Positions 43,337-58,998 of a stretch of DNA of 64,000 nucleotides are shown piece by piece. The stretch comes from Oscillibacter sp. (lineage in GTDB: Bacteria; Bacillota; Clostridia; Oscillospirales; Oscillospiraceae). Below the pieces are notes generated by a model. It was given only the letters and a program-made list of their open reading frames with translations. It did no database searches and was not told the DNA's origin. A program made the translations under genes and the position numbers. Positions within the stretch are counted from its first letter, which is position 1, and every line of letters starts with the position of its first letter. The stretch lies in NCBI GenBank assembly GCA_022652815.1, contig JALCRR010000001.1, positions 62,001 through 126,000 of the forward strand. Direction: 5' to 3'.

Positions 43337-44056
43337 ATGAAGTATCCCCGCAGTGAAGCATATAACACCCCCGCCTTGCAGGCGAAAATCATGGGGCCAA
43401 ATCCCGTCAAGCTGGAAGAAGAGCTGCTGCAAAACCATCAGATTCCGGCGGGAGCCGTGGTCTGCGACCTTGGCAGCGGGCAGGGACTGACCTCCGTATT
43501 TCTTGCAAAGGAATACGGCTTTACGGTCTATGCCGCCGATCTTTGGAGCGACCCCGCCGAAAATCAGGCGTTCTTTGATGAAATGGGGGTTCCCGTCGGG
43601 AAAATCATCCCCGTCAAGGCCGATGCGGAGCATCTGCCGTTTGAACCGTCCTTTTTCGATGCCGTGGTCAGTACGGACTCCTACAACTACTTTGGCCGCG
43701 ATCCCAAGTATCTGGACGAGAAGCTGCTTCCGTTCGTCAAGGACGGCGGACTGATTTACATTGCCATTCCCGGCATGAAGCGGGACTGCCACGAGGATCT
43801 TCCCCGCGAGCTGCTGCTGTCCTGGACACCGGAGCAGCTGGACTACATGCACGACGTGGCCTACTGGACAGCCATGGCGCATCAGTGCCGTGGCGCCGAG
43901 GTGCTCTCCGTCCGGGAGATGGAAAGCAACGACGAGGTCTGGGCGGACTGGCTGAAGCAGGAAAACGAATATGCCGTAGGAGATCGCAAATCCATGGAAG
44001 CCGGCGGCGGGAAGTACCTCAATTTCATTTCCATCGTTCTGCGCAAAAAGGGGTAA
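43337..44056 (+). CDS. Class I SAM-dependent methyltransferase
   Basis: 239 residues. SAM motif I is VVCDLGSGQGLTSVFLAKEY, followed by VYAADLWSDPAENQAFF (motif II) and FDAVVSTDSYNYFG (motif post-II). Resembles the small-molecule methyltransferases of the UbiE/type-11 group; the substrate is unknown. AGGAGG is 9 bases upstream, 37 bases after rsgA. Confidence 0.85.
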   Translation: MKYPRSEAYNTPALQAKIMGPNPVKLEEELLQNHQIPAGAVVCDLGSGQGLTSVFLAKEYGFTVYAADLWSDPAENQAFFDEMGVPVGKIIPVKADAEHLPFEPSFFDAVVSTDSYNYFGRDPKYLDEKLLPFVKDGGLIYIAIPGMKRDCHEDLPRELLLSWTPEQLDYMHDVAYWTAMAHQCRGAEVLSVREMESNDEVWADWLKQENEYAVGDRKSMEAGGGKYLNFISIVLRKKG

Positions 44057-44437: not shown

Positions 44438-45184
44438 ATGATGCTGCGTATTGCGATCTGTGATGATATGCCGGATCAAGTGGAGAAAATCAAAGCCGCC
44501 GAAAAGCAATATTTCAGCGGACATCCGGAGTTTCAAACAGAAACGGTTACCTATTATAATCCCCTCGTTTTTCTGGAGAGTCTGGACAAAACGGGCGGGT
44601 TTGACCTTCTGCTTCTGGACGTGTGTATGCCCGGGATCGACGGGACCCAGGTAGGGGCGGAAGTCCGCAGACGGGGAGACAAAAGCGAGATTATCTTCTT
44701 GACCACAAGCGACGAGTTTGCGGTGGAGGCCTTTGCCTTGAAAGCTGCGCATTATCTGGTCAAGCCCTTCACACAGGCGCAGTTTACCGAGGCGATGAAC
44801 CGGGCCTTGGCACGCTTTGCGCAAAATGCTCCCAAAAACATCACCTTTTATTCCGAGGGCGGCGTATTGCGCACGGTGGCTGCGGATGACATTCTCTACA
44901 TGGAAAGCTGCGGCCACTGCCAGACAGCCTACCTGTCCGACGGAATCTGTACCGAGGGCCGCCGCTCCCTTTCCCGCATGCAGGCGGAACTGAACAAGCT
45001 CTGCCCGGGCCAGTTCGTCAGCCCGTGCAAAGGCTATCTCGTCAATCAAAGGGCAATCCGCACGGTGAAGCCGCGACAGATCATTCTGCATTCGGGTCAC
45101 ACGATCCCTCTGGCGCGGGGCGCGTTCCGCACGTTTTCCGACCAGTATTTTACCTACCAGTTTTCCCGGAGAGAACGGTTGTGA
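44438..45184 (+). CDS. LytTR-family response regulator (orphan)
   Basis: 248 residues. Receiver domain 3-125 with acidic pair CDD (9-10), phosphoacceptor Asp61 in LLLLDVCMPGIDG, Thr region FLTTSDE and Lys in HYLVKPF. LytTR DNA-binding domain from about 140 to 240 (NITFYSEGGVLRTVAADDIL, FVSPCKGYLVNQRAIRTVKP). Such AgrA-like regulators usually answer to a peptide-sensing kinase and control peptide bacteriocin genes. No kinase gene is here, but the peptide export cluster begins 340 bases downstream, so a link is plausible. Confidence 0.9.
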   Translation: MMLRIAICDDMPDQVEKIKAAEKQYFSGHPEFQTETVTYYNPLVFLESLDKTGGFDLLLLDVCMPGIDGTQVGAEVRRRGDKSEIIFLTTSDEFAVEAFALKAAHYLVKPFTQAQFTEAMNRALARFAQNAPKNITFYSEGGVLRTVAADDILYMESCGHCQTAYLSDGICTEGRRSLSRMQAELNKLCPGQFVSPCKGYLVNQRAIRTVKPRQIILHSGHTIPLARGAFRTFSDQYFTYQFSRRERL

Positions 45185-45809: not shown

Positions 45810-46148
45810 ATGAAAAACATCGACTTGACCCCTGCACTGCTGGAACAGGCAAAGACTGCCCCCTCCGCTGCGGCGCTGCTGGCGCTGGCGAAGGAAAACG
45901 GCGTGGAACTGACCGCCGAGGAAGCGGCGTATTTCTTCGTCAGCCTCCATCCCGAGACTGGCAAGCTTTCTGATGAGGAACTGGACAGCGCGGCCGGTGG
46001 TGGTGGCTTCCAATATTATGACGGATTAAAAAAATCCTGCCCGAAATGTCACAATGCACATATGCGGCTGTGCACAGATCCCGCTAATCCTTTGACGAAT
46101 ACCTGGCTGATTTGCGACGCCTGCGGTCACAAGCAGCGGCCTACTTAA
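45810..46148 (+). CDS. Nif11-type leader precursor peptide 1 with zinc-ribbon-like core
   Basis: 112 residues. Leader to residue 65 (NIDLTPALLEQAKTAPSAAA, then LALAKENGVELTAEEAAYFF) is of the Nif11-like type found in NHLM systems and ends in LSDEELDSAAGGG, a double-glycine site for a C39 peptidase. The core of about 48 residues has five Cys: CPKC, a single Cys, and CDAC in SCPKCHNAHMRLC and WLICDACGHK. This looks like a zinc ribbon, unlike a thioether or heterocycle substrate. Start ATG 45810, 8 bases after GGGAGG; ATG 45804 is too close to it. Confidence 0.88.
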   Translation: MKNIDLTPALLEQAKTAPSAAALLALAKENGVELTAEEAAYFFVSLHPETGKLSDEELDSAAGGGGFQYYDGLKKSCPKCHNAHMRLCTDPANPLTNTWLICDACGHKQRPT

Positions 46149-46172
46149 ATTGTAAGAAGTGAGGAAAAGACC

Positions 46173-46490
46173 ATGAAGGACAACGACTTGACCCCCGCAC
46201 TGCTGGAGCAGGCAAAGACCGCCCCTTCCGCCGCGGCGCTGCTGGCACTGGCGAAGGAAAACGGCGTGGAACTGACCGCCGAGGAAGCGATGTATTTCTT
46301 CGTCAGCCTCCACCCCGAGACTGGCAAGCTTTCTGATGAGGAACTGGACAGCGTGGCTGGTGGTGTAAATCAAGAGTTGATCGTCTGCCCACTCTGCGGC
46401 GCCCAACTAGAAACAGCCCATTTTATGGGGGGTTCGTTATATTACGATACCTCGAAACAGTGTCCGAACTGCGGGTGGTGTGAGCTTTAA
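46173..46490 (+). CDS. Nif11-type leader precursor peptide 2 with CxxC core
   Basis: 105 residues. The leader is almost identical to precursor 1 in protein and DNA, so the pair arose by tandem duplication; the cores are unrelated in sequence. The core begins after DSVAGG and has CPLC, then CPNC followed by GWC, again two CxxC knuckles about 30 residues apart. Leader conserved and core changed is the usual pattern in modified-peptide families. GAGGAAAAG precedes the ATG, 24 bases after precursor 1. Confidence 0.88.
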   Translation: MKDNDLTPALLEQAKTAPSAAALLALAKENGVELTAEEAMYFFVSLHPETGKLSDEELDSVAGGVNQELIVCPLCGAQLETAHFMGGSLYYDTSKQCPNCGWCEL

Positions 46491-46615
46491 GCCTAAAAAA
46501 TGATCCGCCCCGAAATGCTGCTGCCCGAACGCAGGGCAGAGGATAAATGGAACATACCGTTTCGTTTCGCCGCGCGGTTTTGTCAGCGAAACGAAAACAG
46601 ATAAGGAGCAATCAT

Positions 46616-47092
46616 ATGCAAAAGAACGCCATCTTTCGTAAAGCCAGCCTGGATCGGGTGTCCTCGCCGGAGCAGCTGAATGACTACATCAAGGTTTCCC
46701 GCCCCGGCGTGTGGCTGATTTTGGGGGCGGTGGTGGTGCTGCTGATCGGCGTATGCGTGTGGGGCGTTCTCGGTTCCCTAACCACCACCTGCGACGGGGT
46801 CGCAGTGGTGCAGGGCGGTGCGGCCACCTGCTATGTCTCGGTGGAGGACGCCAAGGCGCTTGCCGCCGGCATGGAGGTACAGATAGACGGTGCCGTGGGC
46901 AGCGTCCAAAGTGTGGCTGCCGTGCCTGTGGAAGTCGCCGCGGACTTTGACGCCTATGCCCTTTATCTGAGCGGACTCAAGCCGGGAGACTGGGTGGTGC
47001 CGGTGGAGGTGGAGGTTTCCGCCCCTAATGGCGCATACATGGCGAGCATTGTGGTGGAGGCCGTTTCGCCCATCTCCTTTGTGCTGAATTGA
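46616..47092 (+). CDS. NHLM export system adaptor (HlyD-like), short form
   Basis: 158 residues. The N-terminus RKASLDRVSSPEQLNDYIKV and a membrane segment (VWLILGAVVVLLIGVCVWGV) match the start of NHLM secretion proteins. It is far shorter than the roughly 400-residue family: no coiled-coil hairpin, only a small beta domain. It may act as a minimal adaptor in a single-membrane cell. AAGGAG is 7 bases before ATG 46616. Its stop meets the exporter gene with no gap. Confidence 0.78.
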   Translation: MQKNAIFRKASLDRVSSPEQLNDYIKVSRPGVWLILGAVVVLLIGVCVWGVLGSLTTTCDGVAVVQGGAATCYVSVEDAKALAAGMEVQIDGAVGSVQSVAAVPVEVAADFDAYALYLSGLKPGDWVVPVEVEVSAPNGAYMASIVVEAVSPISFVLN

Positions 47093-47100
47093 GGCGGCGT

Positions 47101-49284
47101 ATGGGAAAGCAGCAAAAAAGACGAAAGCAGCCTGTTCAAAAGGGCTGCGTAAAGGTGCCTGTGGTCATGCAGCTGGAAGCGCTGGAGTGCGGCGCGGCAA
47201 GCCTTGCCATGATTCTGGCCTACTATGACAAGTGGGTGCCGCTGGAGCAGGTGCGCGCCGACTGTGGCGTCTCCCGGGACGGCTCCAAGGCGTCCAACAT
47301 TCTGAAAGCAGCCCGCAATTACGGGCTGAAGGCGCAGGGCTTTCGCTACGAGCCGGAGCAGCTGCGGGAAAACGGCGTCTTTCCCTGCATCATTCACTGG
47401 AACTTCAACCACTTTGTGGTGCTCTGCGGATTCAAGGGCGGCAAGGCCTATCTGAATGACCCGGCAAAGGGAACATACAGCGTCACCATGGAGCAGTTTG
47501 ACAAGGCGTTTACCGGCGTGTGCATTTTTTTCGAGCCGGGGGAAACCTTCGTCCCGGACGGCAGACCCAAAAGCACCTGGAGCTTTGCCAAAAAGCGTAT
47601 GGCGGGTACCGGCGCGGCGGTGGCCTTTGTGGCGCTCACCACGGCCATTACCTCGCTGCTGGGCATCATCAGCCCCGCATTTTCCCGCATCTTCTTGGAC
47701 CGGCTGCTCACCGGGCGAAACCCGGAATGGCTGATGCCCTTTGTGGCAGCTCTGGCTTTGATGACTGCCGTGACACTGCTGGTGGCGTGGGTGCAGGCCA
47801 TTTATACGCTGAAGCTGAACGGAAAGCTTGCCATCGTGGCCAACTCCTCGTTTTTGTGGCACGTGCTGCGGCTGCCGATGGAGTTTTTCTCCCAGCGCAT
47901 GGCCGGCGACATCGCCATGCGCCAGGCGCTGAACGAGGGCATCGCAAACGCGCTGATTACGACCCTTGCACCGCTGGTGCTGCAAACGGCTATGATGATC
48001 TTTTACTTCGTGGCCATGCTGCGGTACAGCCTCGTGCTGACGGCGGTGGGCGTGGGTTCCATTCTCATCAACTTGATGATGGCGCGGATCATCTCCCAAA
48101 AGCGGGTCAACGTCACGCGGGTACAGATGCGGGATGCCGGCAAGTTGGCGGGCGCCACCGTGGCGGGGATCGAGATGATTGAGACCATCAAGGCCAGCGG
48201 CGCGGAAAATGGCTTTTTTGAAAAATGGGCGGGCTATCAGGCCGGCGTGAACACCCAGACGGTGAAGTTCGCCAACGTAAACCACTATCTGGGGCTGGTG
48301 CCTCTGCTGGTGTCCACTCTGACCAACACCGCCGTACTGGCGCTGGGCGCATATCTGGCCATACAGGGCCAGTTTACCGCAGGCATGATTCTGGCGTTTC
48401 AAGGCTTTTTGATTGGGTTTACCGGCCCGGCGCAATCCCTCATCGGCGCGGGACAGACCATTTCGGAAATGCGCACCAATATGGAGCGCATCGAGGACGT
48501 CATGGAATACCCCACCGACGTAAAAGAGCAAGCCGGCGTGGATGAGACGGTCGAGTACGACAAGCTCTCCGGCGAGGTAGTAATGCGAGATGTGTCCTTC
48601 GGCTATTCGCCGCTGAATCCGCCGCTGATCGAGCATTTCGACCTGCATTTAAAGCCCGGCAGCCGGGTGGCATTCGTGGGACCCTCCGGCTGCGGAAAGA
48701 GCACCCTCAGCAAGCTGATTTCGGGCCTGTACCAGCCGTGGAGCGGCGAAATTCTATTCGACGGCAAGCCCATCGACCAGATTGACCACAGCGTTTTCAC
48801 TGGCTCGGTGGCGGTGGTGGATCAAGACATCATCCTCTTTGAGGACACGATTTCAAACAACATCAAAATGTGGGACAGCTCCATTGAGGACTTCGAGGTC
48901 ATCATGGCTGCCCGGGATGCCAGTCTCCACGAGGACATCATGGGACGGGACGGCGGCTACGGCTACAAGCTGATGGAGGGCGGCAAGGACTTGTCCGGCG
49001 GACAGCGCCAGCGCCTGGAGATTGCCCGCGTGCTGGCCCAGGACCCCACCATCATCATCATGGACGAGGCTACCTCCGCGCTGGACGCGAAAACCGAGTT
49101 TGAGGTGGTCAACGCCATCAAAAACCGGGGCATCACCTGCATCGTCATCGCCCACCGTCTGTCTACAATTCGGGACTGCGACGAGATTGTGGTTATGGAA
49201 AAGGGCAAGGTGATGGAGCGTGGCACCCACGACGAGCTGTACGCAAAGGGCGGAGTCTATACCTTGCTGGTAGCCAGTGAATAG
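47101..49284 (+). CDS. NHLM peptidase-containing ABC exporter (PCAT)
   Basis: 727 residues. C39 protease domain 1-140 with catalytic Cys in QLEALECGAASLAMILAYYD and His in HWNFNHFVVLCGFKGGKAYL, six membrane segments at about 165-450, and an ATPase with Walker A VAFVGPSGCGKSTLSKLISG, signature DLSGGQRQRLEIARVLAQDP and Walker B TIIIMDEATSALDAKTEFEV. Cuts the leader after the double Gly and exports the core. Substrates should be the precursors on both sides, which share the (T/S)DEELD(N/S)A(S/A)GG box. Start ATG 47101; a TTG at 47089 is the other option. Confidence 0.95.
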   Translation: MGKQQKRRKQPVQKGCVKVPVVMQLEALECGAASLAMILAYYDKWVPLEQVRADCGVSRDGSKASNILKAARNYGLKAQGFRYEPEQLRENGVFPCIIHWNFNHFVVLCGFKGGKAYLNDPAKGTYSVTMEQFDKAFTGVCIFFEPGETFVPDGRPKSTWSFAKKRMAGTGAAVAFVALTTAITSLLGIISPAFSRIFLDRLLTGRNPEWLMPFVAALALMTAVTLLVAWVQAIYTLKLNGKLAIVANSSFLWHVLRLPMEFFSQRMAGDIAMRQALNEGIANALITTLAPLVLQTAMMIFYFVAMLRYSLVLTAVGVGSILINLMMARIISQKRVNVTRVQMRDAGKLAGATVAGIEMIETIKASGAENGFFEKWAGYQAGVNTQTVKFANVNHYLGLVPLLVSTLTNTAVLALGAYLAIQGQFTAGMILAFQGFLIGFTGPAQSLIGAGQTISEMRTNMERIEDVMEYPTDVKEQAGVDETVEYDKLSGEVVMRDVSFGYSPLNPPLIEHFDLHLKPGSRVAFVGPSGCGKSTLSKLISGLYQPWSGEILFDGKPIDQIDHSVFTGSVAVVDQDIILFEDTISNNIKMWDSSIEDFEVIMAARDASLHEDIMGRDGGYGYKLMEGGKDLSGGQRQRLEIARVLAQDPTIIIMDEATSALDAKTEFEVVNAIKNRGITCIVIAHRLSTIRDCDEIVVMEKGKVMERGTHDELYAKGGVYTLLVASE

Positions 49285-49359
49285 GAAGAGGACGAGCAAC
49301 GCAATGGAGCGGCTATCCGGCTTTTTGCCGGATGAAGCGGAATGGAGTTTGTGAGGACG

Positions 49360-51570
49360 ATGGGCTGGTTTGACGAACAAATTAAACAGCGGATAAAGAC
49401 GGACGATGACGCCTTCGCAGAGGCCTTTGCCTCCATGGCGGGGGTGGTCATGGGACGCAGTGCCCAAAGTGCCCTACTGGATGAGCGGCAAAAGACCAAA
49501 AATGCGGTGGACGAGATTTTAAAGTTCTACCGCGTGAAGTCTGTGGAGCTGCCCGATGAGCTGACGGATCTGGACGAGCAGCTGGAATACCTGCTGCGAC
49601 CCTCCGGCGTCATGCGGCGGGTGGTGCATTTGGAGGGTGACTGGTACAAGGACGCGGTGGGCGCGTTCATCGGCACACTGAAAAGCGGCGACGTGGTGGC
49701 GCTGCTGCCCCACGGACTTTCCGGTTACGCCTACTTTGACCATGAGAGTGGAAAAACGGTGAAGCTGAATCGAACCACGGCGGCACTTTTAAACAGCGAG
49801 GCCATTTGCTTTTACAAGCCGCTGCCTCTGCGCAAGCTCTCCATCCGCGACCTGCTTGTGTACATCGCCCAAAGCATTTCTCCGGCGGATTACGCCATGG
49901 TGGCGGCTGCCACACTGGCGGTCACCCTAATCGGTATGCTGGGGCCAAAGCTCAACAGTATCCTCTTTTCCAGTGTCACCGAAAGCGGCAATGTGCGGCT
50001 GCTTGTGGCCGTCACGGTGATGCTGGCGGCTACCGGAATTGCAAGCGTGCTTATGCAAACGGTCAAAACCATCGTACTGGAGCGCCTGCAAACCAAGACC
50101 GGCGCGGCGGTGCAGGCGGCCTCCATGATGCGCGTGCTGTCCCTGCCGGCGGAATTTTTCAAGGAATACAGCGCCGGCGAGCTGAGTAGCCGCGCCCAAA
50201 GCATCAACAGCCTGTGCGTGATGCTGGGCGACGCCATTTTGTCCACCGGGTTGACCTCGGTATTCTCGCTGGTATACATCGCCCAGATTTTCAACTATGC
50301 GCCGGCACTGGCCGTTCCCGCACTGGTGATTATGCTGGCGACGGTGCTCTTTACCGTGATCACCACGCTGGTGCAGATCAAGCGCTCTCAGCGGATCATG
50401 GAGCTTTCTGCACAGGAATCGGGCCTAAACTACTCCCTAATTTCCGGTGTCCAGAAGCTGAAGCTCTCCGGGGCGGAAAAGCGCGCCTTTTCCAAGTGGG
50501 CGGTGCTCTACCGCCAAAAGGCAAGCCTCACCTATGACCCGCCGCTGTTTCTCAAGCTGAACACGGTGATTTCCACGGGCATTTCCTTGGTGGGCACTCT
50601 GGTACTTTATTACGCGGCGGTCAGATCGGGCGTAAGTGTGGCGGACTATTTCGCATTCAACGTGGCTTACGGCATGGTGAGCGGTGCGTTCCTCTCCCTC
50701 TCCGGCATCGCGCTGACGGCGGCAAATATCAAGCCGGTGTTCGAGATGGTCAAGCCCATTCTGGAGACGGTGCCGGAAGTGTCCACCGGCAAAAAGGTGC
50801 TCACCCGCATCTCCGGCGGCATCGAGCTTTCCAACGTGTCCTTCCGCTATTCGGAAAGCATGCCCCTAATTGTGGACAACCTGTCGCTGAAGATCAAACC
50901 GGGACAGTATGTGGCACTGGTGGGCAAAACCGGCTGCGGAAAGTCCACCCTCATGCGGCTGCTGCTGGGTTTTGAAACGCCGCAAAAGGGCGCGATTTAC
51001 TACGATGGCAAGGATATTTCCACCATTGATTTGAAGTCCCTGCGGCGGCGCATCGGCGTGGTGATGCAAAACGGCAAGCTCTTCTCCGGTGATATTTTTT
51101 CCAACATCACCATTTCCGCCCCGTGGCTGACCATGGACGAAGCCTGGGCGGCGGCGGAACTGGCCGGTATCGCGGATGACATCCGGGATATGCCCATGGG
51201 AATGCACACCATGATTTCCGAGGGCAGCGGCGGTGTGTCCGGCGGACAGCGCCAGCGGCTGATGATTGCCAGAGCCGTTGCGCCAAAGCCCCGGGTGCTC
51301 ATGTTCGACGAAGCCACCAGCGCACTGGACAATCTGACGCAAAAGACCGTGGCGGACTCGCTGGCAAGCTTGAAATGCACCCGCATCGTCATCGCCCACC
51401 GCCTGTCCACCATCCGGGAATGTGACCGGATCATTGTGCTGGACGAGGGGCGGGTCATTGAGGACGGCGGTTATGACGAGCTGCTTCAAAAAGACGGCTA
51501 CTTTGCCGAACTGGTGGCGCGCCAGCGGCTGGACGACACGCAATTTGTGGGCAAGACCACATTGTTCTAA
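49360..51570 (+). CDS. NHLM second ABC protein (transmembrane plus ATPase, no peptidase)
   Basis: 736 residues. N-terminal region of about 165 residues special to this family (MGWFDEQIKQRIKTDDDAFA), membrane part, and ATPase with Walker A VALVGKTGCGKSTLMRLLLG, signature SGGQRQRLMIARAVAP and Walker B RVLMFDEATSALDN. In NHLM loci it pairs with the peptidase-containing exporter, probably as a heterodimer. ATG 49360 is chosen since family members begin here; ATG 49342 gives six more residues, and neither has a well-placed ribosome site. Confidence 0.92.
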   Translation: MGWFDEQIKQRIKTDDDAFAEAFASMAGVVMGRSAQSALLDERQKTKNAVDEILKFYRVKSVELPDELTDLDEQLEYLLRPSGVMRRVVHLEGDWYKDAVGAFIGTLKSGDVVALLPHGLSGYAYFDHESGKTVKLNRTTAALLNSEAICFYKPLPLRKLSIRDLLVYIAQSISPADYAMVAAATLAVTLIGMLGPKLNSILFSSVTESGNVRLLVAVTVMLAATGIASVLMQTVKTIVLERLQTKTGAAVQAASMMRVLSLPAEFFKEYSAGELSSRAQSINSLCVMLGDAILSTGLTSVFSLVYIAQIFNYAPALAVPALVIMLATVLFTVITTLVQIKRSQRIMELSAQESGLNYSLISGVQKLKLSGAEKRAFSKWAVLYRQKASLTYDPPLFLKLNTVISTGISLVGTLVLYYAAVRSGVSVADYFAFNVAYGMVSGAFLSLSGIALTAANIKPVFEMVKPILETVPEVSTGKKVLTRISGGIELSNVSFRYSESMPLIVDNLSLKIKPGQYVALVGKTGCGKSTLMRLLLGFETPQKGAIYYDGKDISTIDLKSLRRRIGVVMQNGKLFSGDIFSNITISAPWLTMDEAWAAAELAGIADDIRDMPMGMHTMISEGSGGVSGGQRQRLMIARAVAPKPRVLMFDEATSALDNLTQKTVADSLASLKCTRIVIAHRLSTIRECDRIIVLDEGRVIEDGGYDELLQKDGYFAELVARQRLDDTQFVGKTTLF

Positions 51571-51598
51571 AAGAAACCGTATTGAAAGGAGCATGTTT

Positions 51599-51826
51599 AT
51601 GGCGAAGAAAGATTTAATGGCCAATGGAAACGCTCTGACCGATGAGGAACTGGACAACGCATCCGGCGGTGCGAATGAGATCAGTATTGTGGAAAATCCG
51701 ATGCCGGTTGCGCCGGGTATTCCACTGCCGCCCACTCCGGGCAATCCGACGGTCCCCACTCTGGAAATGCCGGAATCGCCCGTAACCCCAACTGCCCCGT
51801 TCCAACAGAACAAATATATAAACTAA
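51599..51826 (+). CDS. Proline-rich double-glycine precursor peptide 1
   Basis: 75 residues. Very short leader, MAKKDLMANGNALTDEELDN then ASGG at 21-24. The core of 51 residues starts ANEISIVENP and is built of xxP triplets (PMPVAPGIPLPPTPGNP, then TVPTLEMPESPVTPTAP), ending FQQNKYIN. No Cys, Ser only once. The leader end matches the Nif11 leaders, so the same exporter should process it. AAGGAG lies 7 bases before ATG 51599. No known peptide class matches by eye. Confidence 0.85.
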   Translation: MAKKDLMANGNALTDEELDNASGGANEISIVENPMPVAPGIPLPPTPGNPTVPTLEMPESPVTPTAPFQQNKYIN

Positions 51827-51839
51827 AGACAAACGATCA

Positions 51840-52388
51840 ACACCTCGAGACTGCGTGCGTGCGCTATTCAGATAGGAGGTTTTTACGATGAAAGAAAACA
51901 AACGGTTTCCGCAGGGAAATGCCCTGAGCGATGAGGAGCTGGACAACGCGTCCGGCGGTGCGAATGAGATCAGCATTGTGGAAAATCCGATGCCGGTTGC
52001 GCCGGGTGTTCCACTGCCGCCCACCCCAGGCAATCCGACGGCCCCCACTCTGGAAATTCCGGAATCGCCCGTAACCCCGGCGAACCCGTTCCAACAGAAC
52101 AAATATATAAACTAAAAGCAAACGATCAACACCCCGAGACTGCGTGCGGGCTCTATTCAGATAGGAGGTTTTTACGATGAAAGAAAACAAACGGTTTCCG
52201 CAGGGAAATGCCCTAAGCGATGAGGAGCTGGACAACGCGTCCGACGGGTTAAATGGAATCGGCGTTGAGAAAAATCCCATGCCGGTTGCGCCGGGCGTTT
52301 TACTGCCGCCCTCTCCGGGCAATCCGACGGGTCCCACTCTGGAAATGCCGGAATCGCCCGTAACCCCAGCGAGCCCGTTCCGGCAGAA
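51840..52388 (+). repeat. Tandem duplication of the proline-rich precursor gene (289-bp unit)
   Basis: The block from AAACGATCAACACC (51830s) through GGAGGTTTTTACGATG and the coding region recurs 289 bases later (starts at 51888 and 52177). The second copy of the block ends about 52388, where similarity stops after CCGTTCCGGCAGAA and sequence of another gene begins. Confidence 0.85.
51888..52115 (+). CDS. Proline-rich double-glycine precursor peptide 2
   Basis: 75 residues, MKENKRFPQGNALSDEELDN followed by ASGG. The core differs from peptide 1 at a few places only (V for I, A for V, I for M, AN for TA), all between the prolines; every Pro is kept. That pattern suggests selection for the proline spacing. 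AGGAGG is 9 bases upstream. Confidence 0.85.
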   Translation: MKENKRFPQGNALSDEELDNASGGANEISIVENPMPVAPGVPLPPTPGNPTAPTLEIPESPVTPANPFQQNKYIN

Positions 52389-52428
52389 TTTTATTTCATT
52401 GCACACGGCATCAAGCTCGGCAGCGTGA
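52177..52428 (+). CDS. Proline-rich precursor peptide 3, decayed copy
   Basis: 83 residues. The ribosome site and first 20 residues equal copy 2, but the cleavage site reads ASDG in place of ASGG and the next residues (LNGIGVEKNP) differ. After PASPFRQN the natural end KYIN is lost and the frame reads FISLHTASSSAA through sequence that in another frame encodes a SPASM domain. A deletion joined this copy to the neighbouring gene. Without the second Gly, C39 processing is doubtful. Confidence 0.7.
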   Translation: MKENKRFPQGNALSDEELDNASDGLNGIGVEKNPMPVAPGVLLPPSPGNPTGPTLEMPESPVTPASPFRQNFISLHTASSSAA

Positions 52429-52697
52429 AGGAGCAGGCACTTGCACGGCTCCTGTCACAGCGTTCCTACTTGGATGCGGTCTGCACCACCGTGGGAGCGC
52501 TTGTCCGACACAATGAACAATGCCGCAGCTGCCGCTGGTGGAAGCGCTGCACCCGCGGTTGCCGCGCCAGTGGCCTTTTCTCCACCGACGACCCTCTAGG
52601 GGAGGACAAGGCAAAATGCGTCTACTTTAAAAACGGATATTTGGGAAAAACCGCCGCAGCTTTTGCGGGAAACACCGCATGGCGGGGAATGAAATAG
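52389..52697 (+). pseudogene. C-terminal SPASM remnant of a radical-SAM peptide maturase
   Basis: In one frame 52389-52697 reads FYFIAHGIKLGSVKEQALAR, then LLSQRSYLDAVCTTVG and CRSCRWWKRCTRGCRA...KCVYFKNGYL. The spacing C-x2-C-x5-C-x3-C plus a later Cys before YFKNGY is the SPASM auxiliary-cluster pattern of radical-SAM enzymes that modify peptides. The SAM barrel is absent and the similarity begins without a start codon exactly where precursor 3 breaks off. A GTG at 52425 could start an 90-residue product coupled to precursor 3, so a small SPASM protein is the alternative. Confidence 0.72.
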
Positions 52698-52711
52698 AGA
52701 GGATGCGTTTG

Positions 52712-53272
52712 ATGAAAGAAATCAAGATGAAGGGGAGCAGGGTGAGCGAGGCACTGGCGCAGATCGATGCGCTGGAGGATTTAAGCCCCAAGAACAAGGG
52801 CTGTCTGCGGCTGCTCACCGAGGAAATGTTCTCCATGTGCAAAGAGCTTCTGAATGCGCAGGTCGTAGACTTTGAAATAAAGCGCGATCAGGAGCGGTAC
52901 ACCTTGCGCGTGACGACCCAGACGCGGGTGAATGAAGCGGCGCGGGAACAGTTTCTCTCCATGAGCAGCAGCGGCAAAAATGCCGCCAATCAAGGCATTA
53001 AGGGCATGCTGGGCGCTGTTTTGGAGGCGCTGTCCTTTGCAAATAACGATCCCACGCTCTCCAACGCCTGCTGGACTTACGGGATGAGCACACCGGGAGG
53101 CGAGTACGCCTGCATGTGGTCGCTCTCGCATTACATGGATGTCGCCCCGGCCGAAACGGTGAAAAGCGACTGGGACGGCATGGAAAAATCCATTATCGCA
53201 AACTTTGCCGACGACGTATCCATCGGGGTGCGCGGCGACAGGTTGGAAATGACAGTAACCAAAAATTTTTAA
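52712..53272 (+). CDS. Degenerate GHKL-type ATPase-like protein
   Basis: 186 residues. The arrangement fits an RsbW/SpoIIAB-like ATPase fold: LSPKNKGCLRLLTEEMFSMC in the place of the N-box helix, and a beta-rich C-terminus (VSIGVRGDRLEMTVTKNF). The N-box lacks its Asn and no clear DxGxG box is seen, so ATP binding is uncertain. It is 17 bases upstream of a STAS gene, the usual partner of such ATPases. Start ATG 52712, 9 bases after AGAGG; ATGs at 52679 and 52703 are less likely. Confidence 0.65.
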   Translation: MKEIKMKGSRVSEALAQIDALEDLSPKNKGCLRLLTEEMFSMCKELLNAQVVDFEIKRDQERYTLRVTTQTRVNEAAREQFLSMSSSGKNAANQGIKGMLGAVLEALSFANNDPTLSNACWTYGMSTPGGEYACMWSLSHYMDVAPAETVKSDWDGMEKSIIANFADDVSIGVRGDRLEMTVTKNF

Positions 53273-53289
53273 TGATGGAGGAATAAAAA

Positions 53290-53586
53290 ATGACAATCAA
53301 CAAAACGACGAACGCAGCAGAACTGACGGTGGCTCTGGCCGGCCGACTGGACACCAGCACGGCGCCCCAGCTGGAAGCGGAACTGAAAACCTCTTTGAAC
53401 GGCGTGACGAGTCTCGTGATGGACTTTACCGAACTGGAGTACATCTCCTCCGCCGGACTGCGTGTGCTGCTCTCGGCGCAAAAGGTCATGAACAAGCAGG
53501 GAAAAATGGTGATCCGCCATGCAAACGAGACCATTATGGAGGTCTTTGAGGTCACCGGCTTCACGGATATTCTCACCATCGAGTGA
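53290..53586 (+). CDS. STAS-domain anti-anti-sigma-type protein
   Basis: 98 residues, a complete SpoIIAA/RsbV-like STAS domain. SLVMDFTELEYISSAGLRVL carries the phosphorylation loop, with Ser53 or Ser54 as the likely target. In partner switches it is phosphorylated by an RsbW-like kinase and freed by a PP2C phosphatase, both of which are encoded just downstream. GGAGGAATAAAAA precedes the ATG. Its stop codon shares a base with the next start. Confidence 0.93.
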   Translation: MTINKTTNAAELTVALAGRLDTSTAPQLEAELKTSLNGVTSLVMDFTELEYISSAGLRVLLSAQKVMNKQGKMVIRHANETIMEVFEVTGFTDILTIE

Positions 53587-55385
53587 TGAGACAATCACCC
53601 TCCGGCGCCCTAACGGACGACGGCAGCTTCATTCAGCAAACCTTTTACCATCACCTCGCACCGGCCATGCTCTCCATGTTCGGCGTAATGGCCAGCACCA
53701 TGGCCAACACCTTGATTACGGGCAATGTGCTGGGCGCAGACGGACTGGCCGCCATGAGCGTGGTCATGCCCATCTATTTCGTGTTTGCCACCATCGGCTC
53801 GCTGGTGGGCGTGGGCGGATCCACACTGGCCTCCCATGCCATTGGCCGCAACAGGCAGGCTGACGCGGACGGAGCGCTCACGCTCTCGGTGGTGCTGGCT
53901 GTGGGTCTGGCGCTGGCGGTTTCCGCACTGGGACTGCTTTTTCTGGATCCGATTTTGCGCCTGCTGGGGGCGCAGGGCAACCTGTACCCCATGGCGCGGG
54001 CGTATAGTCTGATCTATGTGGCCGGGGGCGTGGGAACCACCGTGTTTTACCTGCCCTATAACTTTCTGAAGTTGATGGGCCGGCTGCGGCTGCTGACGGC
54101 GCTGTTTTTCGGGATGGCGGTCATGAATGTGGCACTGGATCTGCTGTTTCTGCTGCCGATGGGAATGGGACTTGCCGGCGTGGCTTTGGGCACGGTACTG
54201 GCCTCTTTGATTACGGCGGTGGCGGGAACCGTATGCCTTGTGCGGGGTCCGGGCGCATTCCACCTGGTGAGCCTGCGGGGACGGGGCAAGGATGCGCTGC
54301 GGCTGATGGAGCAGGGCAGTCCGTCTGCCCTCAACAATTTGGCCACGGTGCTGCGTTCCATGCTTTTAAACCGCATCGTCTTGTCGGTGGCGGGCAGCGT
54401 GGGACTGGCCGCTCTCAGCATTGTCTCCACCACGGCCAACCTATCCCTCACGGTGCTGTCCGGCCTTCCGCAGGCCACGGCACCGTTCGTGGGCGTTTTC
54501 ACCTGCCAGCGGGATAACACCAGCCTGCGCCAGATGGAAAAATTGGCCCTGGGCGTGGGAATGGGTCTGATGTGCGTGTTTGCGGCGCTGGTGTCGGTGT
54601 TCGCCGGACCCTTGTGCCGCCTGTTCGGCGTGGTAGATCCCCTGACGCTGGCAAAAGCCGCCCATGCAGTGCGGCTGTTTGCCGCAAGCCTGATCGCGGC
54701 GCTGCCCTGCTGCCTGCTGATTACCTATTATCAAGCTGGCGGGCATACGGGACTTGCCAACCTGATGACGGTGTGCCGGGCATTCGTGTTTGTCGTGGGG
54801 CCGGCGTGGCTGCTTGCTTCTCGACTGGGCCTTTCCGGCGTATGGGCTGCCTTCAGCGCAGGGGAGTGGGCAACACTGCTGATTCTTGGAATTGTGCTAA
54901 TCTTTTGCCGAAAAAAGGGACGGTATTCGCCCATTTTGCTGCTGGATCGCAACATCGAGCAAAACGGCGCCTACATTTCCTTTGCGGTAAAAGCCGAAAG
55001 TTCCGCCATTGCGGAGTGTGCCGAGCAGATCGAGGATTTCTGCACGCAAAATGAGCTCAGCCCCAAGCGCACCATGCTGGTCAGCCTCTCGCTGGAGGAA
55101 ATGCTGACGGGCATCCGCGACCACTGCTTCCCGGACGAACCCCAGCGCACCATGGACGTGCGCATTCTGGTGGTGCCCGACCAGACCCGCAAGGATGACG
55201 TGGTGGTCATCCGCATTCGCAGCGGCGGACCTGCCTTTAACCCCATCGCCTACTACGAAAGGCGCGCAGAGGAGTCCCCAGAGAATGTGGGAGACTCACT
55301 GGGTATTGGAATGATTGTCAAAGCCGCCGAGGTTGTGGACTATAAGAGTACCTTCGGGGTCAATAACCTAACGGTCATGCTCTGA
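53586..55385 (+). CDS. MATE-type transporter fused to an RsbW-like ATPase domain
   Basis: 599 residues. Residues 15-450 are a MATE transporter with 12 membrane segments (LAPAMLSMFGVMASTMANTL at the first). A soluble C-terminal domain (about 465-599) has LVSLSLEEMLTGIRDHCFPD as N-box, RSGGPAFNPIAYYERR as G1-like box with the Asp replaced by Ser, and GDSLGIGMIVKAAEVVDYKS then NNLTVML, the RsbW/HATPase_c_2 pattern. The fusion ties a serine-kinase-type domain to a membrane pump. Start ATG 53586 touches the STAS stop; GTG 53583 is possible. Confidence 0.85.
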   Translation: MRQSPSGALTDDGSFIQQTFYHHLAPAMLSMFGVMASTMANTLITGNVLGADGLAAMSVVMPIYFVFATIGSLVGVGGSTLASHAIGRNRQADADGALTLSVVLAVGLALAVSALGLLFLDPILRLLGAQGNLYPMARAYSLIYVAGGVGTTVFYLPYNFLKLMGRLRLLTALFFGMAVMNVALDLLFLLPMGMGLAGVALGTVLASLITAVAGTVCLVRGPGAFHLVSLRGRGKDALRLMEQGSPSALNNLATVLRSMLLNRIVLSVAGSVGLAALSIVSTTANLSLTVLSGLPQATAPFVGVFTCQRDNTSLRQMEKLALGVGMGLMCVFAALVSVFAGPLCRLFGVVDPLTLAKAAHAVRLFAASLIAALPCCLLITYYQAGGHTGLANLMTVCRAFVFVVGPAWLLASRLGLSGVWAAFSAGEWATLLILGIVLIFCRKKGRYSPILLLDRNIEQNGAYISFAVKAESSAIAECAEQIEDFCTQNELSPKRTMLVSLSLEEMLTGIRDHCFPDEPQRTMDVRILVVPDQTRKDDVVVIRIRSGGPAFNPIAYYERRAEESPENVGDSLGIGMIVKAAEVVDYKSTFGVNNLTVML

Positions 55386-55414
55386 CCCGATACCAGGCAA
55401 GGAGGAAACGAAAG

Positions 55415-56443
55415 ATGTATCACACGCTCACCAATGAAAAAGACGGCCGGTGCATTCAGGTGCAGTTCCGCCCTTTTCAGGACAAGGATGCGCCCGAGCT
55501 CATTCGCTGCATCCGTTCGGAATATGCGGACACCTATTTTAAGCGTGGCTTTTACACGCCCGAAACCCTAATTCGGGAAAATGCCAGCGGCCACATTCGC
55601 TTTTTGACGGCGGAGCTTTCTGACGGCGGCGTGGCGGGTATGTTGGCGCTCAAACGTTTCCTGCCGAGGGAGGATATGTGCGAAATCGCCTCCCAAATTT
55701 TCAAGTCCGAATATCGCGGCTTTCACATGGCATGGCCGTTTTTCCAATACGGCATGGAGCAGATTGACCGAATGGATGTCTCGGCGGTCTACTGTCTGCC
55801 GGTGGTGTTCCACGACATCACCGAGGTACTGATGGAGCGCATCGGCCTGATGCCCTGCGGCTTTGTCTTTTCGGTGTTTCGCATGGACGTCATTCACCAC
55901 TCCTACCCCCGGGACGAAAACTTCAAGCATCCCCAGGGCATCATGGTGCAGCCCAAAAGCAAGCGCGATGGGGGCAGAATTTTCGTGCCGGCGGAGCACA
56001 GCGCCTTTGCCCGGGACATCTACGGTTCTATGAAAGCGGACTGTGCGCCGGATTCCACCGCCGTCCCTCTCACTGGAGAGAGTAACCTGTTTTTTGAAAA
56101 CGATGAGATTCAAAAAAGCTGCGCCATCCATGTAGATCGCGCAGGCGCCGATCTGGCGGCGCGGATTTTGGCCATCCGGGCAGCGAACCCCGAACCTCTG
56201 CAAACCTTCAATGTATTTCTGAACATCAGCGATGAAAGCGCTGTGGCGGCTTATGAAGCTTTGACGGCGCTGGGCTTTTTCTTCGCGGGCTTCCAGCCTT
56301 TGTGCAGCGCTCGGGAGATCATGGTGCTCCACGATCCCGGCAGCGTGCCGCTGTATCTGGATGCGCTTGCATTGACGCCCCGCTTTCAGCGGGTGCGGGA
56401 CTACATCAAACCGTTCTATGAAAAGAGGAGGGCGCGGGAATGA
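55415..56443 (+). CDS. GNAT-like protein in the partner-switch operon
   Basis: 342 residues, about twice a single GNAT domain. The first half reads like an acetyltransferase fold (QFRPFQDKDAPELIRCIRSE, AELSDGGVAGMLALKRFLPR). The second half repeats the fold weakly (NVFLNISDESAVAAYEALTA, LGFFFAGFQPLCSAREIMVL). No classical R-x-x-G-x-G acetyl-CoA loop is visible, so activity is uncertain. It overlaps the phosphatase gene by 4 bases (ATGA) and follows the MATE fusion by 29, so it belongs to one transcript. Confidence 0.65.
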   Translation: MYHTLTNEKDGRCIQVQFRPFQDKDAPELIRCIRSEYADTYFKRGFYTPETLIRENASGHIRFLTAELSDGGVAGMLALKRFLPREDMCEIASQIFKSEYRGFHMAWPFFQYGMEQIDRMDVSAVYCLPVVFHDITEVLMERIGLMPCGFVFSVFRMDVIHHSYPRDENFKHPQGIMVQPKSKRDGGRIFVPAEHSAFARDIYGSMKADCAPDSTAVPLTGESNLFFENDEIQKSCAIHVDRAGADLAARILAIRAANPEPLQTFNVFLNISDESAVAAYEALTALGFFFAGFQPLCSAREIMVLHDPGSVPLYLDALALTPRFQRVRDYIKPFYEKRRARE

Positions 56444-58998
56444 AACTGCGGATTGGACAAAAGGTCGTGGCGCTGGTGGTGGCGTGCAGCGCCCTGTCGA
56501 TTTTGATCTTGAGCGGGATTTCCCTCTATGGCATCACCGGCGTGCGCCAAAGCGCGGTGAACGCAGGCACCCAGCTGGGTGACAGCGCGGCGGAAAACAG
56601 CCGCTCGGCTCTGGAAAATCAGGCCAAGGAGCAGCTGGCTGCCCTCGCTCTGGAAAAGGCCCGCTATACGGAGTCCAAGCTTCAGACCATCAGCGATAAT
56701 GTGGAGATTTTGGCCAGCGAAATGACGCAGCTGACCTCCAATCCCCGCAGCTATGCGCCGCGCTCCGTTGCACCCCCTCGGCGGGAGAATGCCGGGCAGA
56801 TCACGCCCCAACTGCTCCTCTCCGCATCGGTGACCAACCCCAACGATCCCGCTTTACAGGCGGAAATCGGCACAGCGGCCAACATTCAAGATTTTCTGGT
56901 GCGCATGAATGCGGCCAGCGACGTGGTAGCTTCCTCCTACATCGCCTCCAAAAACGGATTTGTCATCATGGCGGATAAAATTGCGGATCAGAAATTTGCC
57001 GACGCTTCCACAACCCAGCCCGCCCCATACGAAGCCTTTGCACGTCCCTGGTACAAAAAGGCGTCTGCGGAGCAGAAGCTGGTGTTTACCGACGTGGTCA
57101 ACGACATCAACGGCGGCGGCCTGTGCATCATCTGCGCCGCGCCCTATACCGACAACGGCACATTTGCCGGAGTCGTGGGCATGGGCTCCTACCTCACGGA
57201 AATCAATCAGATCGTGCTGAGCACCCAGATCGGGCAAAACGGCTTCGGCTTCATTTTAAACGGGAAAGGCGAGGTCACCATCTCTCCCAAGACCGAGGGC
57301 GAGCTGACTGCCGACCCGGATAACCCCACCGATCTGCGCGAAAGTGAAAATGCCGGGCTTGCCGACCTCGCCTCCCAGATGACCGCCGGCGGCAGCGGCG
57401 TGGCGCGGGTGACGCTGGACGGCAAGGACTGCTATCTGGCCTATTCACCGCTGTCCAGCGTGGGCTGGAGCTTCGCCACTGTCATTGAAACCAGCGAGGT
57501 CGTTGCCCCCGCCCAGCAGACCCAATCCGCCATTCACGACCTGACCAATACGGCAGTGTCCGACATGAACGGGCGGATCAGCGGCATGCTGGTGATGATG
57601 GTTGTTGCCGCCGCGGTACTGCTGGCACTGGTGGCTCTGGTTGGCTGGAATCTGGCCTCTCGTCTGGCACGGCCCATCCGCAAACTCACCGACGGCGTGC
57701 GGGATATCAGCGGCGGCAATCTGGATCTCAAGCTGGACATCCATACCGGCGACGAGATCGAAAGCCTTGCCCTCTCCTTCAACGCCATGACGCAGGAGCT
57801 ACACGAATACATGGACAACCTGACCAGAATCACGGCGGAAAAGGAACGCATCGGCGCGGAGCTGGACGTGGCCAAGCACATTCAGGCCAGTATGCTGCCC
57901 TGCATTTTCCCGGCATTCCCCGAGCGTCCGGAACTGGACATCTATGCCACCATGACCCCTGCCAAAGAGGTGGGCGGCGATTTCTATGACTTCTTCCTGG
58001 TGGATGACGACCATCTGGCCATGGTCATGGCAGACGTATCCGGCAAGGGCGTTCCGGCGGCACTGTTCATGGTGATTGCCAAAACCCTGCTGAAAAACGT
58101 GGCCCAGACGGGCCTATGCCCCAAGGCCGTGCTGGAAAAGGTGAACAACCAGCTGTGCGTGGGCAACGAGGCGGAGATGTTCGTCACCGTCTGGCTGGGC
58201 ATTCTGGAAATTTCCACCGGCACGATGACCTGCGCCAATGCGGGACATGAGTACCCCGTTGTCAAACGGGGAAGCGGCGACTATGAGCTTGTCCGCGACA
58301 GGCATGGCTTCGTGTTGGCGGGGATGGAAGGTTCCCGCTACAAGGAGTATGAACTGCACATGGACCCGGGTGATCGGATTTTCCTTTACACCGATGGCGT
58401 AGCCGAGGCTACCGATGCAAATAACGAACTTTACGGGACGGATCGGATGCTTGCGGCGCTGAACCGCAGCAAGGGAGCAACCTGTGAAACCCTTCTCGGT
58501 CTGCTGAAGCAGGACATTGATGCGTTTGTGGGAGAGGCTCCCCAGTTCGACGACATCACGATGCTGAGCCTGGAGCTGAAGCCGCAGAGCGGCTCTGCCA
58601 TGAAGCGGTTGAAGCTGGCACCCTCACTGGATGCCATCGACAGCGTGACGGCCTTTGTGGAGCAGGAGCTGGAGGCGGCGGACGTTCCCATGAAGGTCAT
58701 CATGCAGATGAATATTGCTGTGGACGAGATTTTCTCCAACATTGCCCGCTATTCCGGTGCCACCGATGCCACGGTGGGCGTGGGCGTATCGGACGGCGTT
58801 GCGACGCTGCGCTTTGCCGACAACGGCAGCCCCTATGACCCCACCCAGAAAGCCGACCCGAACATCGCCCTCTCCGCCGAGGAGCGGGACGTTGGCGGCC
58901 TTGGCATTTTCATGGTCAAAAAATCCATGGACAGTGTGGAATACGAGTATCACGACGGCTTGAATATCCTTACACTCAAAAAACGAAGCGGCATGTAA
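56440..58998 (+). CDS. Sensor PP2C (SpoIIE-type) phosphatase with Cache, HAMP and ATPase domains
   Basis: 852 residues. Membrane segment 9-31, outer Cache sensor about 35-365, membrane segment 381-403, HAMP 405-458 (RPIRKLTDGVRDISGGNLDL), PP2C domain about 490-710 with EVGGDFYDFFLVDDDHLAMV, MADVSGKGVPAALFMV and FDDITMLSLEL, and an ATPase domain 725-852 with N-box DEIFSNIARY, DNGSPYDP and GGLGIFMVKK. It holds phosphatase and kinase-type domains in one chain, so it can reset the STAS protein both ways. Ribosome site GAGGAGGG lies inside the upstream gene. Confidence 0.93.
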   Translation: MKLRIGQKVVALVVACSALSILILSGISLYGITGVRQSAVNAGTQLGDSAAENSRSALENQAKEQLAALALEKARYTESKLQTISDNVEILASEMTQLTSNPRSYAPRSVAPPRRENAGQITPQLLLSASVTNPNDPALQAEIGTAANIQDFLVRMNAASDVVASSYIASKNGFVIMADKIADQKFADASTTQPAPYEAFARPWYKKASAEQKLVFTDVVNDINGGGLCIICAAPYTDNGTFAGVVGMGSYLTEINQIVLSTQIGQNGFGFILNGKGEVTISPKTEGELTADPDNPTDLRESENAGLADLASQMTAGGSGVARVTLDGKDCYLAYSPLSSVGWSFATVIETSEVVAPAQQTQSAIHDLTNTAVSDMNGRISGMLVMMVVAAAVLLALVALVGWNLASRLARPIRKLTDGVRDISGGNLDLKLDIHTGDEIESLALSFNAMTQELHEYMDNLTRITAEKERIGAELDVAKHIQASMLPCIFPAFPERPELDIYATMTPAKEVGGDFYDFFLVDDDHLAMVMADVSGKGVPAALFMVIAKTLLKNVAQTGLCPKAVLEKVNNQLCVGNEAEMFVTVWLGILEISTGTMTCANAGHEYPVVKRGSGDYELVRDRHGFVLAGMEGSRYKEYELHMDPGDRIFLYTDGVAEATDANNELYGTDRMLAALNRSKGATCETLLGLLKQDIDAFVGEAPQFDDITMLSLELKPQSGSAMKRLKLAPSLDAIDSVTAFVEQELEAADVPMKVIMQMNIAVDEIFSNIARYSGATDATVGVGVSDGVATLRFADNGSPYDPTQKADPNIALSAEERDVGGLGIFMVKKSMDSVEYEYHDGLNILTLKKRSGM

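What the first reader, a model, noticed from the sequence alone, without database searches (positions are those of the whole stretch)
45810..52697. NHLM peptide-export locus with two unrelated precursor families sharing one cleavage box
Two Nif11-type precursors (45810, 46173) and three short proline-rich precursors (51599, 51888, 52177) flank one C39-peptidase exporter pair. Leaders differ in length (about 65 versus 24 residues) but share the box (T/S)DEELD(N/S)A(S/A)GG. This suggests that the peptidase reads only this 13-residue box and that the long Nif11 part serves another purpose. NHLM exporters are known; this mixed substrate set is unusual.
Basis: partly seen in the sequence, partly recalled or inferred. 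Interest (0 to 1): 0.85.

Follow-up and report, generated by a model that had tools for sequence, protein, structure and literature searches.

The report
One peptide exporter, two leader types
A bacterium carries a standard peptide-export operon whose protein cutter recognises a short tag shared by two unrelated kinds of small precursor; that rule was already known from a close relative, and what is odd here is that the enzyme that should modify the peptides has been cut down to a stub.

Summary
The two Nif11-like and three proline-rich genes flank one NHLM exporter, as stated. Corrections: proline-rich copy 3 has lost the cleavage site (ASDG, not ASGG), and its 3' end runs into a 101-residue stub of a radical-SAM/SPASM peptide maturase. 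Mixed long and short leaders are not exceptional: 12 of 89 other loci with detected precursors have them, and in one Lachnospiraceae locus a 24-residue leader is visibly a Nif11 leader with its middle deleted. New here: (i) the proline-rich family was found in no other genome searched; (ii) the operon has lost its maturase, and no other SPASM domain and no LanM was found in this genome, so the precursors are probably exported unmodified; (iii) relatives of the downstream STAS, MATE-HATPase and SpoIIE genes recur beside such exporters (any of the three in 25 of 59 loci, 0 of 32 control stretches), which suggests that a partner-switching circuit belongs to this operon type. Verdict: a new variant of a known kind, of moderate interest.

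The parts
45810..46148 (+). Nif11-like precursor 1: 64-residue leader ending KLSDEELDSAAGG, core with CPKC...CDAC (zinc-ribbon-like)
46173..46490 (+). Nif11-like precursor 2: leader 178/192 nt identical to that of gene 1, ends KLSDEELDSVAGG; different core with CPLC...CPNC
46616..47092 (+). short HlyD-type adaptor (158 aa), best match to the first 54 positions of TIGR03794; short forms are usual in relatives
47101..49284 (+). ABC1: NHLM exporter with N-terminal C39 peptidase; C39 domain 103/146 identical to LahT147 (6MPZ), catalytic Cys, His, Asp and the Gln kept (ATG read from the ORF; the searches used 47104)
49342..51570 (+). ABC2: second NHLM ABC permease/ATPase
51599..51826 (+). proline-rich precursor 1: 24-residue leader ending ALTDEELDNASGG, 51-residue anionic Cys-free core
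51888..52115 (+). proline-rich precursor 2: leader ending ALSDEELDNASGG
52177..52428 (+). proline-rich copy 3, damaged: cleavage site ASDG, 3' end replaced from about 52389
52392..52697 (+). stub: last ~100 residues (SPASM end) of an NHLM-associated radical-SAM maturase (461-478 aa in relatives); first ~360 residues absent
52703..53272 (+). divergent RsbW/SpoIIAB-like protein (no Pfam match; fold search of a low-confidence model points to anti-sigma kinases); start uncertain (52679, 52703 or 52712; the searches used 52709)
53290..53586 (+). STAS-domain protein (anti-sigma-antagonist type)
53583..55385 (+). MATE transporter with C-terminal HATPase_c_2 domain
55415..56443 (+). 342-aa protein without Pfam match; relatives between MATE and SpoIIE genes in L135 and L062
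56440..58998 (+). dCache-HAMP-SpoIIE phosphatase-HATPase_c_2 protein

Best explanation
This is an NHLM-type (LahT-like) peptide-export operon that has lost its maturase. The exporter's C39 peptidase docks the last ~13 residues of a leader (Leu-12, Leu-7, a hydrophobic residue at -4, Gly-Gly), so it serves both the 64-residue Nif11-like leaders and the 24-residue leaders (inferred from a tested homologue with 70.5% identity; not tested here). The Nif11 body is most likely the docking part for a modifying enzyme; in relatives a radical-SAM/SPASM maturase sits beside long-leader precursors, whereas here it is reduced to a C-terminal stub, probably by a deletion that also took the 3' end of the third proline-rich gene. 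The two four-cysteine Nif11-like peptides and two proline-rich peptides are therefore probably exported unmodified; the third proline-rich copy is probably dead. The proline-rich peptides occupy the slot just after ABC2 where relatives keep other GG-leader peptides, often short-leader ones. The RsbW-like, STAS, MATE-HATPase and SpoIIE genes that follow on the same strand have relatives beside many such exporters and probably regulate the operon (inference).
For: C39 domain 103/146 identical to LahT147, catalytic residues kept; anchor residues L-12, L-7, A or V at -4 and GG present in four of five precursors. Box DNA identity between the two families (26-29 of 39 nt) is no higher than expected from the shared residues (P 0.10-0.43), which fits constraint on the protein rather than recent copying. 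The stub aligns from about residue 366 of 463 with maturases from the same family; it is the only SPASM match in the genome at E 0.01, no LanM was found, and no other piece of this maturase was found. Counterparts with a full-length maturase: L131 has ABC2 (cut by the contig end), a 28-residue-leader precursor, three precursors with 55-61-residue leaders, maturase, another long-leader precursor, STAS, MATE-HATPase, SpoIIE in one direction. Congener L049 has ABC2, a 25-residue-leader GG peptide, a sigma-70-family gene and a maturase whose two halves lie on two contigs. A Nif11 body can be lost while the box stays: L201's 24-residue leader matches the first 36 nt (31) and last 39 nt (34) of its neighbour's 65-residue leader, which passes TIGR03798 at 41.9 bits. 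STAS, SpoIIE or MATE relatives near exporters: 25 of 59 loci against 0 of 32 control stretches, Fisher P 3e-6.
Against: No cleavage, export or expression was measured. The genome is a 69-contig draft, 96.5% complete, so a maturase could be missing; YcaO and other modifiers were not searched, and three generic radical-SAM matches exist. The 342-aa protein at 55.4 kb is unassigned. Copy 3 does not look strongly relaxed by dN/dS (copies 2-3, core: dN 0.147, dS 0.314). The window's 24-residue leaders show no clear similarity to the 5' end of its Nif11-like leaders (13-15 of 36 nt), so they need not have arisen as in L201. The long leaders of L131, the best full counterpart, do not match TIGR03798, so it is not proof for Nif11 in particular. 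No cassette relative was found in 34 of 59 exporter loci (several on short contigs), and the RsbW-like protein has relatives in only 3 of 59.
Confidence: 0.65

Rival explanations
1. The Nif11 body still has a working partner: another enzyme or chaperone encoded in this genome binds it, and the Nif11-like peptides are modified before export while the proline-rich ones are not.
For: The two Nif11-like leaders are well kept (178 of 192 nt; 9 silent against 4 replacement codon changes), as if still selected. Three generic radical-SAM matches are present elsewhere, and a methyltransferase-domain gene lies at 43337-44056.
Against: The only SPASM match in the genome is the stub and no LanM was found; no recognised peptide modifier lies between 45.8 and 59.0 kb, though the 342-aa protein there is unassigned.
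Confidence: 0.2
2. The proline-rich genes were substrates of the lost maturase and are now remnants; the 3' part of the peptide operon is decaying.
For: They sit directly upstream of the stub, copy 3 is damaged, and no other genome searched has them.
Against: Copies 1 and 2 keep box, frame and Shine-Dalgarno-like sites, and their cores show dN below dS (0.062 against 0.151). Around relatives of the maturase, 32 of 52 loci with precursors have long leaders only and 4 short leaders only.
Confidence: 0.12
3. The stub and the damaged third copy are an assembly fault and a full-length maturase gene exists.
For: Draft genome of 69 contigs.
Against: The junction lies inside a 153,828-base contig, the genes on both sides are those found beside such maturases and exporters in other loci, and no other piece of the maturase was found in the assembly.
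Confidence: 0.08

Closest known systems
LahT / lah locus of Lachnospiraceae C6A11 (PMC6363468)
   Same: C39 domain 103/146 identical; one peptidase cuts many leaders through the last 13 residues; Nif11-type leaders
   Different: In the passages read, the lah cluster has nine precursors with relatively conserved Nif11-type leaders; here there are Nif11-like plus 24-residue proline-rich precursors, and a maturase stub
NHLM export system with N11P/NHLP precursors (TIGR03794/96/97/98; Haft et al. 2010, PMC2887384)
   Same: exporter pair over both curated cut-offs; shared motif before Gly-Gly across leader families, including short bacteriocin leaders
   Different: short HlyD, Nif11 scores just below cut-off, no recognised modifying enzyme left beside it
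Class II double-glycine leader bacteriocins (TIGR01847 type) and pheromones (ComC/BlpC, recalled)
   Same: 23-24-residue leader with the same box; unmodified linear product likely
   Different: core is anionic and 25% proline and passes no family cut-off in NCBIfam or Pfam
RsbU/RsbV/RsbW or SpoIIE/SpoIIAA/SpoIIAB partner switching (general scheme recalled)
   Same: SpoIIE-type phosphatase, STAS protein and an RsbW-like protein in one run of genes
   Different: includes a MATE transporter fused to a HATPase domain and follows a peptide exporter; I identified no sigma-factor gene in this run here, though congeners L049 and L052 have one between ABC2 and the maturase

Membership tests
NHLM export system | C39-containing ABC1 over the TIGR03796 cut-off | tested here: met
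   940.2 against 853.3 bits
NHLM export system | ABC2 over the TIGR03797 cut-off | tested here: met
   742.9 against 709.4 bits
NHLM export system | HlyD over the TIGR03794 cut-off | tested here: not met
   40.7 against 156.2 bits; in relatives 54 hits in 53 of 59 loci lie in open frames of 69-299 residues, against a model of 421
Nif11 leader (TIGR03798 / PF07862) | score over curated cut-off | tested here: not met
   30.1 and 29.9 against 32.3; 22.3 and 22.4 against 23.8. Hence called Nif11-like; leaders in L127 and L201 pass (33.5, 41.9, 40.2)
Nif11 leader (TIGR03798 / PF07862) | similarity ends at a Gly-Gly site followed by an unrelated core | tested here: met
   match runs to model position 68/68; the two cores differ while leaders are 178/192 nt identical
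LahT-type C39 substrate | Leu-12, Leu-7, hydrophobic -4, Gly-2 Gly-1 | tested here: met
   four of five precursors (-4 is A or V); proline-rich copy 3 fails at -2
LahT-type C39 substrate | actual cleavage | not testable with these tools
   needs purified domain and peptides
RiPP locus (radical-SAM/SPASM or LanM type) | full-length modifying enzyme of that type | tested here: not met
   SPASM stub only; no LanM found; other modifier types not searched
Proline-rich antimicrobial peptide | cationic proline-rich peptide | tested here: not met
   net charge -3 by K+R-D-E, 25% Pro; the definition is recalled
Zinc ribbon (Nif11-like cores) | paired CxxC knuckles on a beta hairpin | tested here: inconclusive
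   four Cys invariant in 8 aligned precursors; model of pLDDT 67 with a hairpin between the Cys pairs; several leading fold matches are zinc ribbons, all E above 0.1
Partner-switching module | STAS protein and SpoIIE-type phosphatase | tested here: met
   Pfam STAS 53 bits, SpoIIE 162 bits
Partner-switching module | RsbW-type kinase | tested here: inconclusive
   protein at 52.7 kb has no Pfam match over cut-off; a single-sequence model (pLDDT 59) has anti-sigma kinases (SpoIIAB, RsbW, UsfX and relatives) as its first 13 fold matches, E from 2.3e-4, with high rmsd

The most novel reading that the evidence does not exclude
A class of NHLM/long-leader/radical-SAM peptide operons in Clostridia is run by its own partner-switching circuit (SpoIIE phosphatase with a Cache sensor, STAS protein, RsbW-like protein, and a MATE transporter fused to an anti-sigma-kinase-like domain). 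In this genome the operon has shed its maturase and become an exporter of unmodified zinc-ribbon-like and anionic proline-rich peptides, so the Nif11 leader body is a relic. Both halves are directly testable.
Probability: 0.33. Interest if true: 0.62.

Novelty: new variant of a known kind. Interest (0 to 1): 0.42.

Why it matters
It points to natural experiments on what a long RiPP leader is for. Within single loci the same four-cysteine core type occurs behind a 64-65-residue Nif11 or Nif11-like leader and behind a 24-residue leader (L151, L201), and in L201 the short leader is a visible internal deletion; in the window the maturase is gone while leader and exporter remain. If the linked partner-switching genes do control these operons, they would supply a signal input for RiPP clusters that are otherwise hard to switch on. 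The original idea, that the C39 domain reads only the box, matters less because it is already established for LahT150.

Tried and rejected
Proline-rich family elsewhere: 85 congeners (two weak hits, E 0.0034 and 0.0088, each with an in-frame stop, set aside), 399 other genomes of the family, some of them the same congeners, a scan of the 84,980-species collection (258 pattern stretches, none confirmed), viral contigs (400 stretches, none confirmed), plasmids and phages by DNA: no relative. The species and viral scans rest on two short peptide patterns and find close relatives only.

The idea that the box was recently copied between the two precursor families in the window: rejected, DNA identity no higher than expected. 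The idea that HlyD is broken: rejected, short forms are usual. Proline-rich antimicrobial peptide: rejected, anionic. Box census: the rules were too strict and missed known precursors; the rule is looser, gives at least one evident false positive in the window itself (a 96-residue leader) and still misses boxes such as ADEALDAVAGG (L057, L058, seen). Of its 9 mixed exporter loci (window included) and 6 mixed loci without exporter on the contig, L160 and L217 were dropped by hand because the short start lies inside a longer leader. Promoter-like and terminator-like sites were near background (9 against 6.0, sd 2.3; 20 against 16.5, sd 5.3); no Rfam match at the gathering threshold. A profile of the 52.7-kb protein gave no Pfam or solved-structure match worth keeping (weak leukocidin matches, E 0.6, treated as chance). 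While checking this report I scanned L131's long leaders, which I had called Nif11-like by eye, and withdrew that name; I lowered the main confidence by 0.01 for it.
Full report
What is there. On the + strand from 45.8 to 59.0 kb lies a close run of genes: two Nif11-like precursors, a short HlyD, the NHLM exporters ABC1 (with C39 peptidase) and ABC2, three proline-rich genes, a radical-SAM/SPASM stub, an RsbW-like protein, a STAS protein, a MATE-HATPase fusion, a 342-aa protein without Pfam match, and a dCache-HAMP-SpoIIE-HATPase protein. Both exporters pass their curated cut-offs. The Nif11 matches fall just short of theirs, so I call these leaders Nif11-like. The genome is an unnamed draft of 2.25 Mb in 69 contigs. 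Stretches identical to two other members of its family appear in the named collection as an Oscillospiraceae and a Clostridia MAG (L183 and L138).

The box. The Nif11-like leaders are 64 residues and 178 of 192 nt identical to each other, with unrelated cores behind them. The proline-rich leaders are 24 residues. All five carry LxDEELD before the cleavage site, but copy 3 reads ASDG, and the stated formula fits 3 of 5 letter by letter. These are the only five such ORFs in the window under that rule; 20 random windows gave 5 in all. At the DNA level the box is no more alike between the two families than the shared residues require (P 0.10-0.43), which fits constraint by the peptidase rather than recent copying.

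The peptidase. The C39 domain matches LahT147 (6MPZ) at 249.5 bits, 103 of 146 residues identical, with the Cys, His, Asp and Gln named for the LahT active site in place. For LahT150 it has been shown that 13 leader residues suffice, that -4, -7 and -12 matter while Glu-8 and Glu-5 can be changed, and that Nif11, nitrile-hydratase and short leaders are cut (PMC6363468, passages and sections 8 and 9; review PMC10885120, passages). The common motif across leader families of average length 23 to 87 was tabulated in 2010 (PMC2887384, passages). That copy 3's Asp at -2 prevents cutting is inferred from the Gly requirement of this peptidase class, not from a call.

Is the mixture unusual? NHLM ABC1 genes were found in 6 of 86 genomes of the genus (own included) and 50 of 400 of the family (own included). 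I fetched 59 other neighbourhoods, 13 around relatives of the stub, and the best 80 of 191 loci from a species-wide scan with the maturase. With the window and after removing overlapping copies, 146 loci remained, 104 with an exporter and 90 with at least one detected precursor. Among the 63 loci with both, the rule gave 33 with long leaders only (50 residues or more), 18 short only (35 or fewer) and 9 mixed; the other 3 had middle lengths only. Of all 15 mixed loci I dropped two as miscalled starts; that leaves 12 besides the window, of 89 other loci with precursors. Two place the same core type behind both leaders: L151 (64 and 24 residues) and L201 (65 and 24), all with four invariant cysteines. 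In L201 the 24-residue leader matches the first 36 nt (31) and last 39 nt (34) of the neighbouring Nif11 leader, with the middle missing; that neighbour passes TIGR03798. L127 has five long leaders of 68-69 residues (one scanned, over the Nif11 cut-off), LanM, a maturase and two 24-residue leaders, one with a proline-bearing core. The census has some false positives and misses some real precursors, so the counts are approximate.

What is unusual. First, the proline-rich family: no relative in 85 congeners, 399 other family genomes, or the species scan. The stretch within 1.8 kb after ABC2 holds GG peptides in 46 of 88 loci checked, the window included, many with short leaders; the window's cores have the highest proline content of that list (25%; the next is 19%) and are anionic and free of cysteine. 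In the congener L049 a 25-residue-leader peptide starts about 80 nt after ABC2, followed by a small gene, a sigma-70-family gene and a maturase gene.

Second, the maturase stub. It aligns to the last ~98 residues of 461-478-aa radical-SAM/SPASM proteins, several of which lie beside long-leader precursors and NHLM exporters. The first ~360 residues are absent here and were not found elsewhere in the assembly, the stub is the only SPASM match in the genome, and no LanM was found. Likeness of proline-rich copy 3 to copy 2 ends within a few bases of where the maturase homology begins, as a deletion would leave it. L131, in the same family, shows a fuller version of the order: ABC2 (cut by the contig end), 28-residue-leader precursor, three precursors with leaders of 61, 55 and 61 residues, maturase, a precursor with a 63-residue leader, STAS, MATE-HATPase, SpoIIE. 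Its long leaders do not match TIGR03798 at E 0.01, so it parallels the layout but not the Nif11 identity.

Third, the regulatory cassette. Relatives (over 60 bits) of the window's STAS, SpoIIE and MATE-HATPase proteins occur in 19, 18 and 8 of 59 exporter loci (25 with any) and in 0 of 32 stretches from the same set of genomes; 51 of 53 hits lie on the exporter's strand. The RsbW-like protein has relatives in 3 of 59 and the 342-aa protein in none at that threshold. The control stretches were chosen by contig number, not at random by position, and total 596 kb against 905 kb. The protein at 52.7 kb has no Pfam match, but a low-confidence model finds anti-sigma kinases first. I noticed no paper on this linkage among the titles and abstract starts listed (2 of 2 papers listed; 12 of 651; 8 of 8; 8 of 14), in an open library that misses most subscription journals; so this is a weak statement of absence.

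How it most likely works. Shown: gene content, order, box, homology to LahT, loss of the maturase in this assembly, recurrence of the cassette. Inferred: the C39 domain cuts four of the five precursors after GG while ABC1 exports them; the Nif11 body once docked the maturase and is now idle or used by an unknown partner; copy 3 is not cut; the cassette senses a small molecule through Cache, dephosphorylates STAS, and thereby frees a target. What the exported peptides do is unknown; zinc-ribbon-like cores and anionic proline-rich cores argue against classical cationic bacteriocins, and a signalling role is possible given a LytTR response-regulator gene upstream at 44.4 kb.

Verdict. The maturase loss, the proline-rich peptides seen in this genome only and the partner-switching linkage make it a variant worth a modest follow-up.

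Noticed in passing
window 52703-58998; exporter loci L015 and L049-L106: STAS, MATE-HATPase and SpoIIE genes recur beside NHLM exporters (any of them in 25 of 59 loci, 0 of 32 controls) and look like a regulatory module of these operons; I saw no report of it in the listings searched.
   Followed up: partly
window 46616-47092: The HlyD adaptor is only 158 aa, far shorter than the 421-position TIGR03794 model; short forms are usual in the family's NHLM loci, as might suit cells without an outer membrane.
   Followed up: partly
L201 12357-12584 and 12632-12949; L158 8424-8669: Short leaders that look like Nif11 leaders with an internal deletion of the helical body (L201 checked at the DNA level; L158 by eye).
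   Followed up: partly
L057, L058, L059, L062 just after ABC2: Groups of peptides with GG leaders of mostly 18-24 residues and four-to-six-cysteine zinc-ribbon-like cores without any Nif11 body.
   Followed up: no
L067, L084, L088, L090: A family of 23-residue anionic cores (GDPFA.PR.PE.PIDD.LRKDG or similar) with 27-35-residue leaders near NHLM exporters.
   Followed up: no
L049 979-1458, L052 1820-2338: Sigma-70-family genes (Sigma70_r2 68 and 65 bits) between ABC2 and the maturase in two congeners; possible targets of a partner switch.
   Followed up: partly
L069, L073, L102, L133, L049: A recurrent small protein with a 48-51-residue leader-like part (MLE..LFDYQRF...LSDDDLALAAGG or similar) near these exporters.
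   Followed up: no
window 44438-45184: LytTR-type response regulator upstream of the Nif11-like genes; I saw no kinase gene beside it in the ORF list.
   Followed up: no
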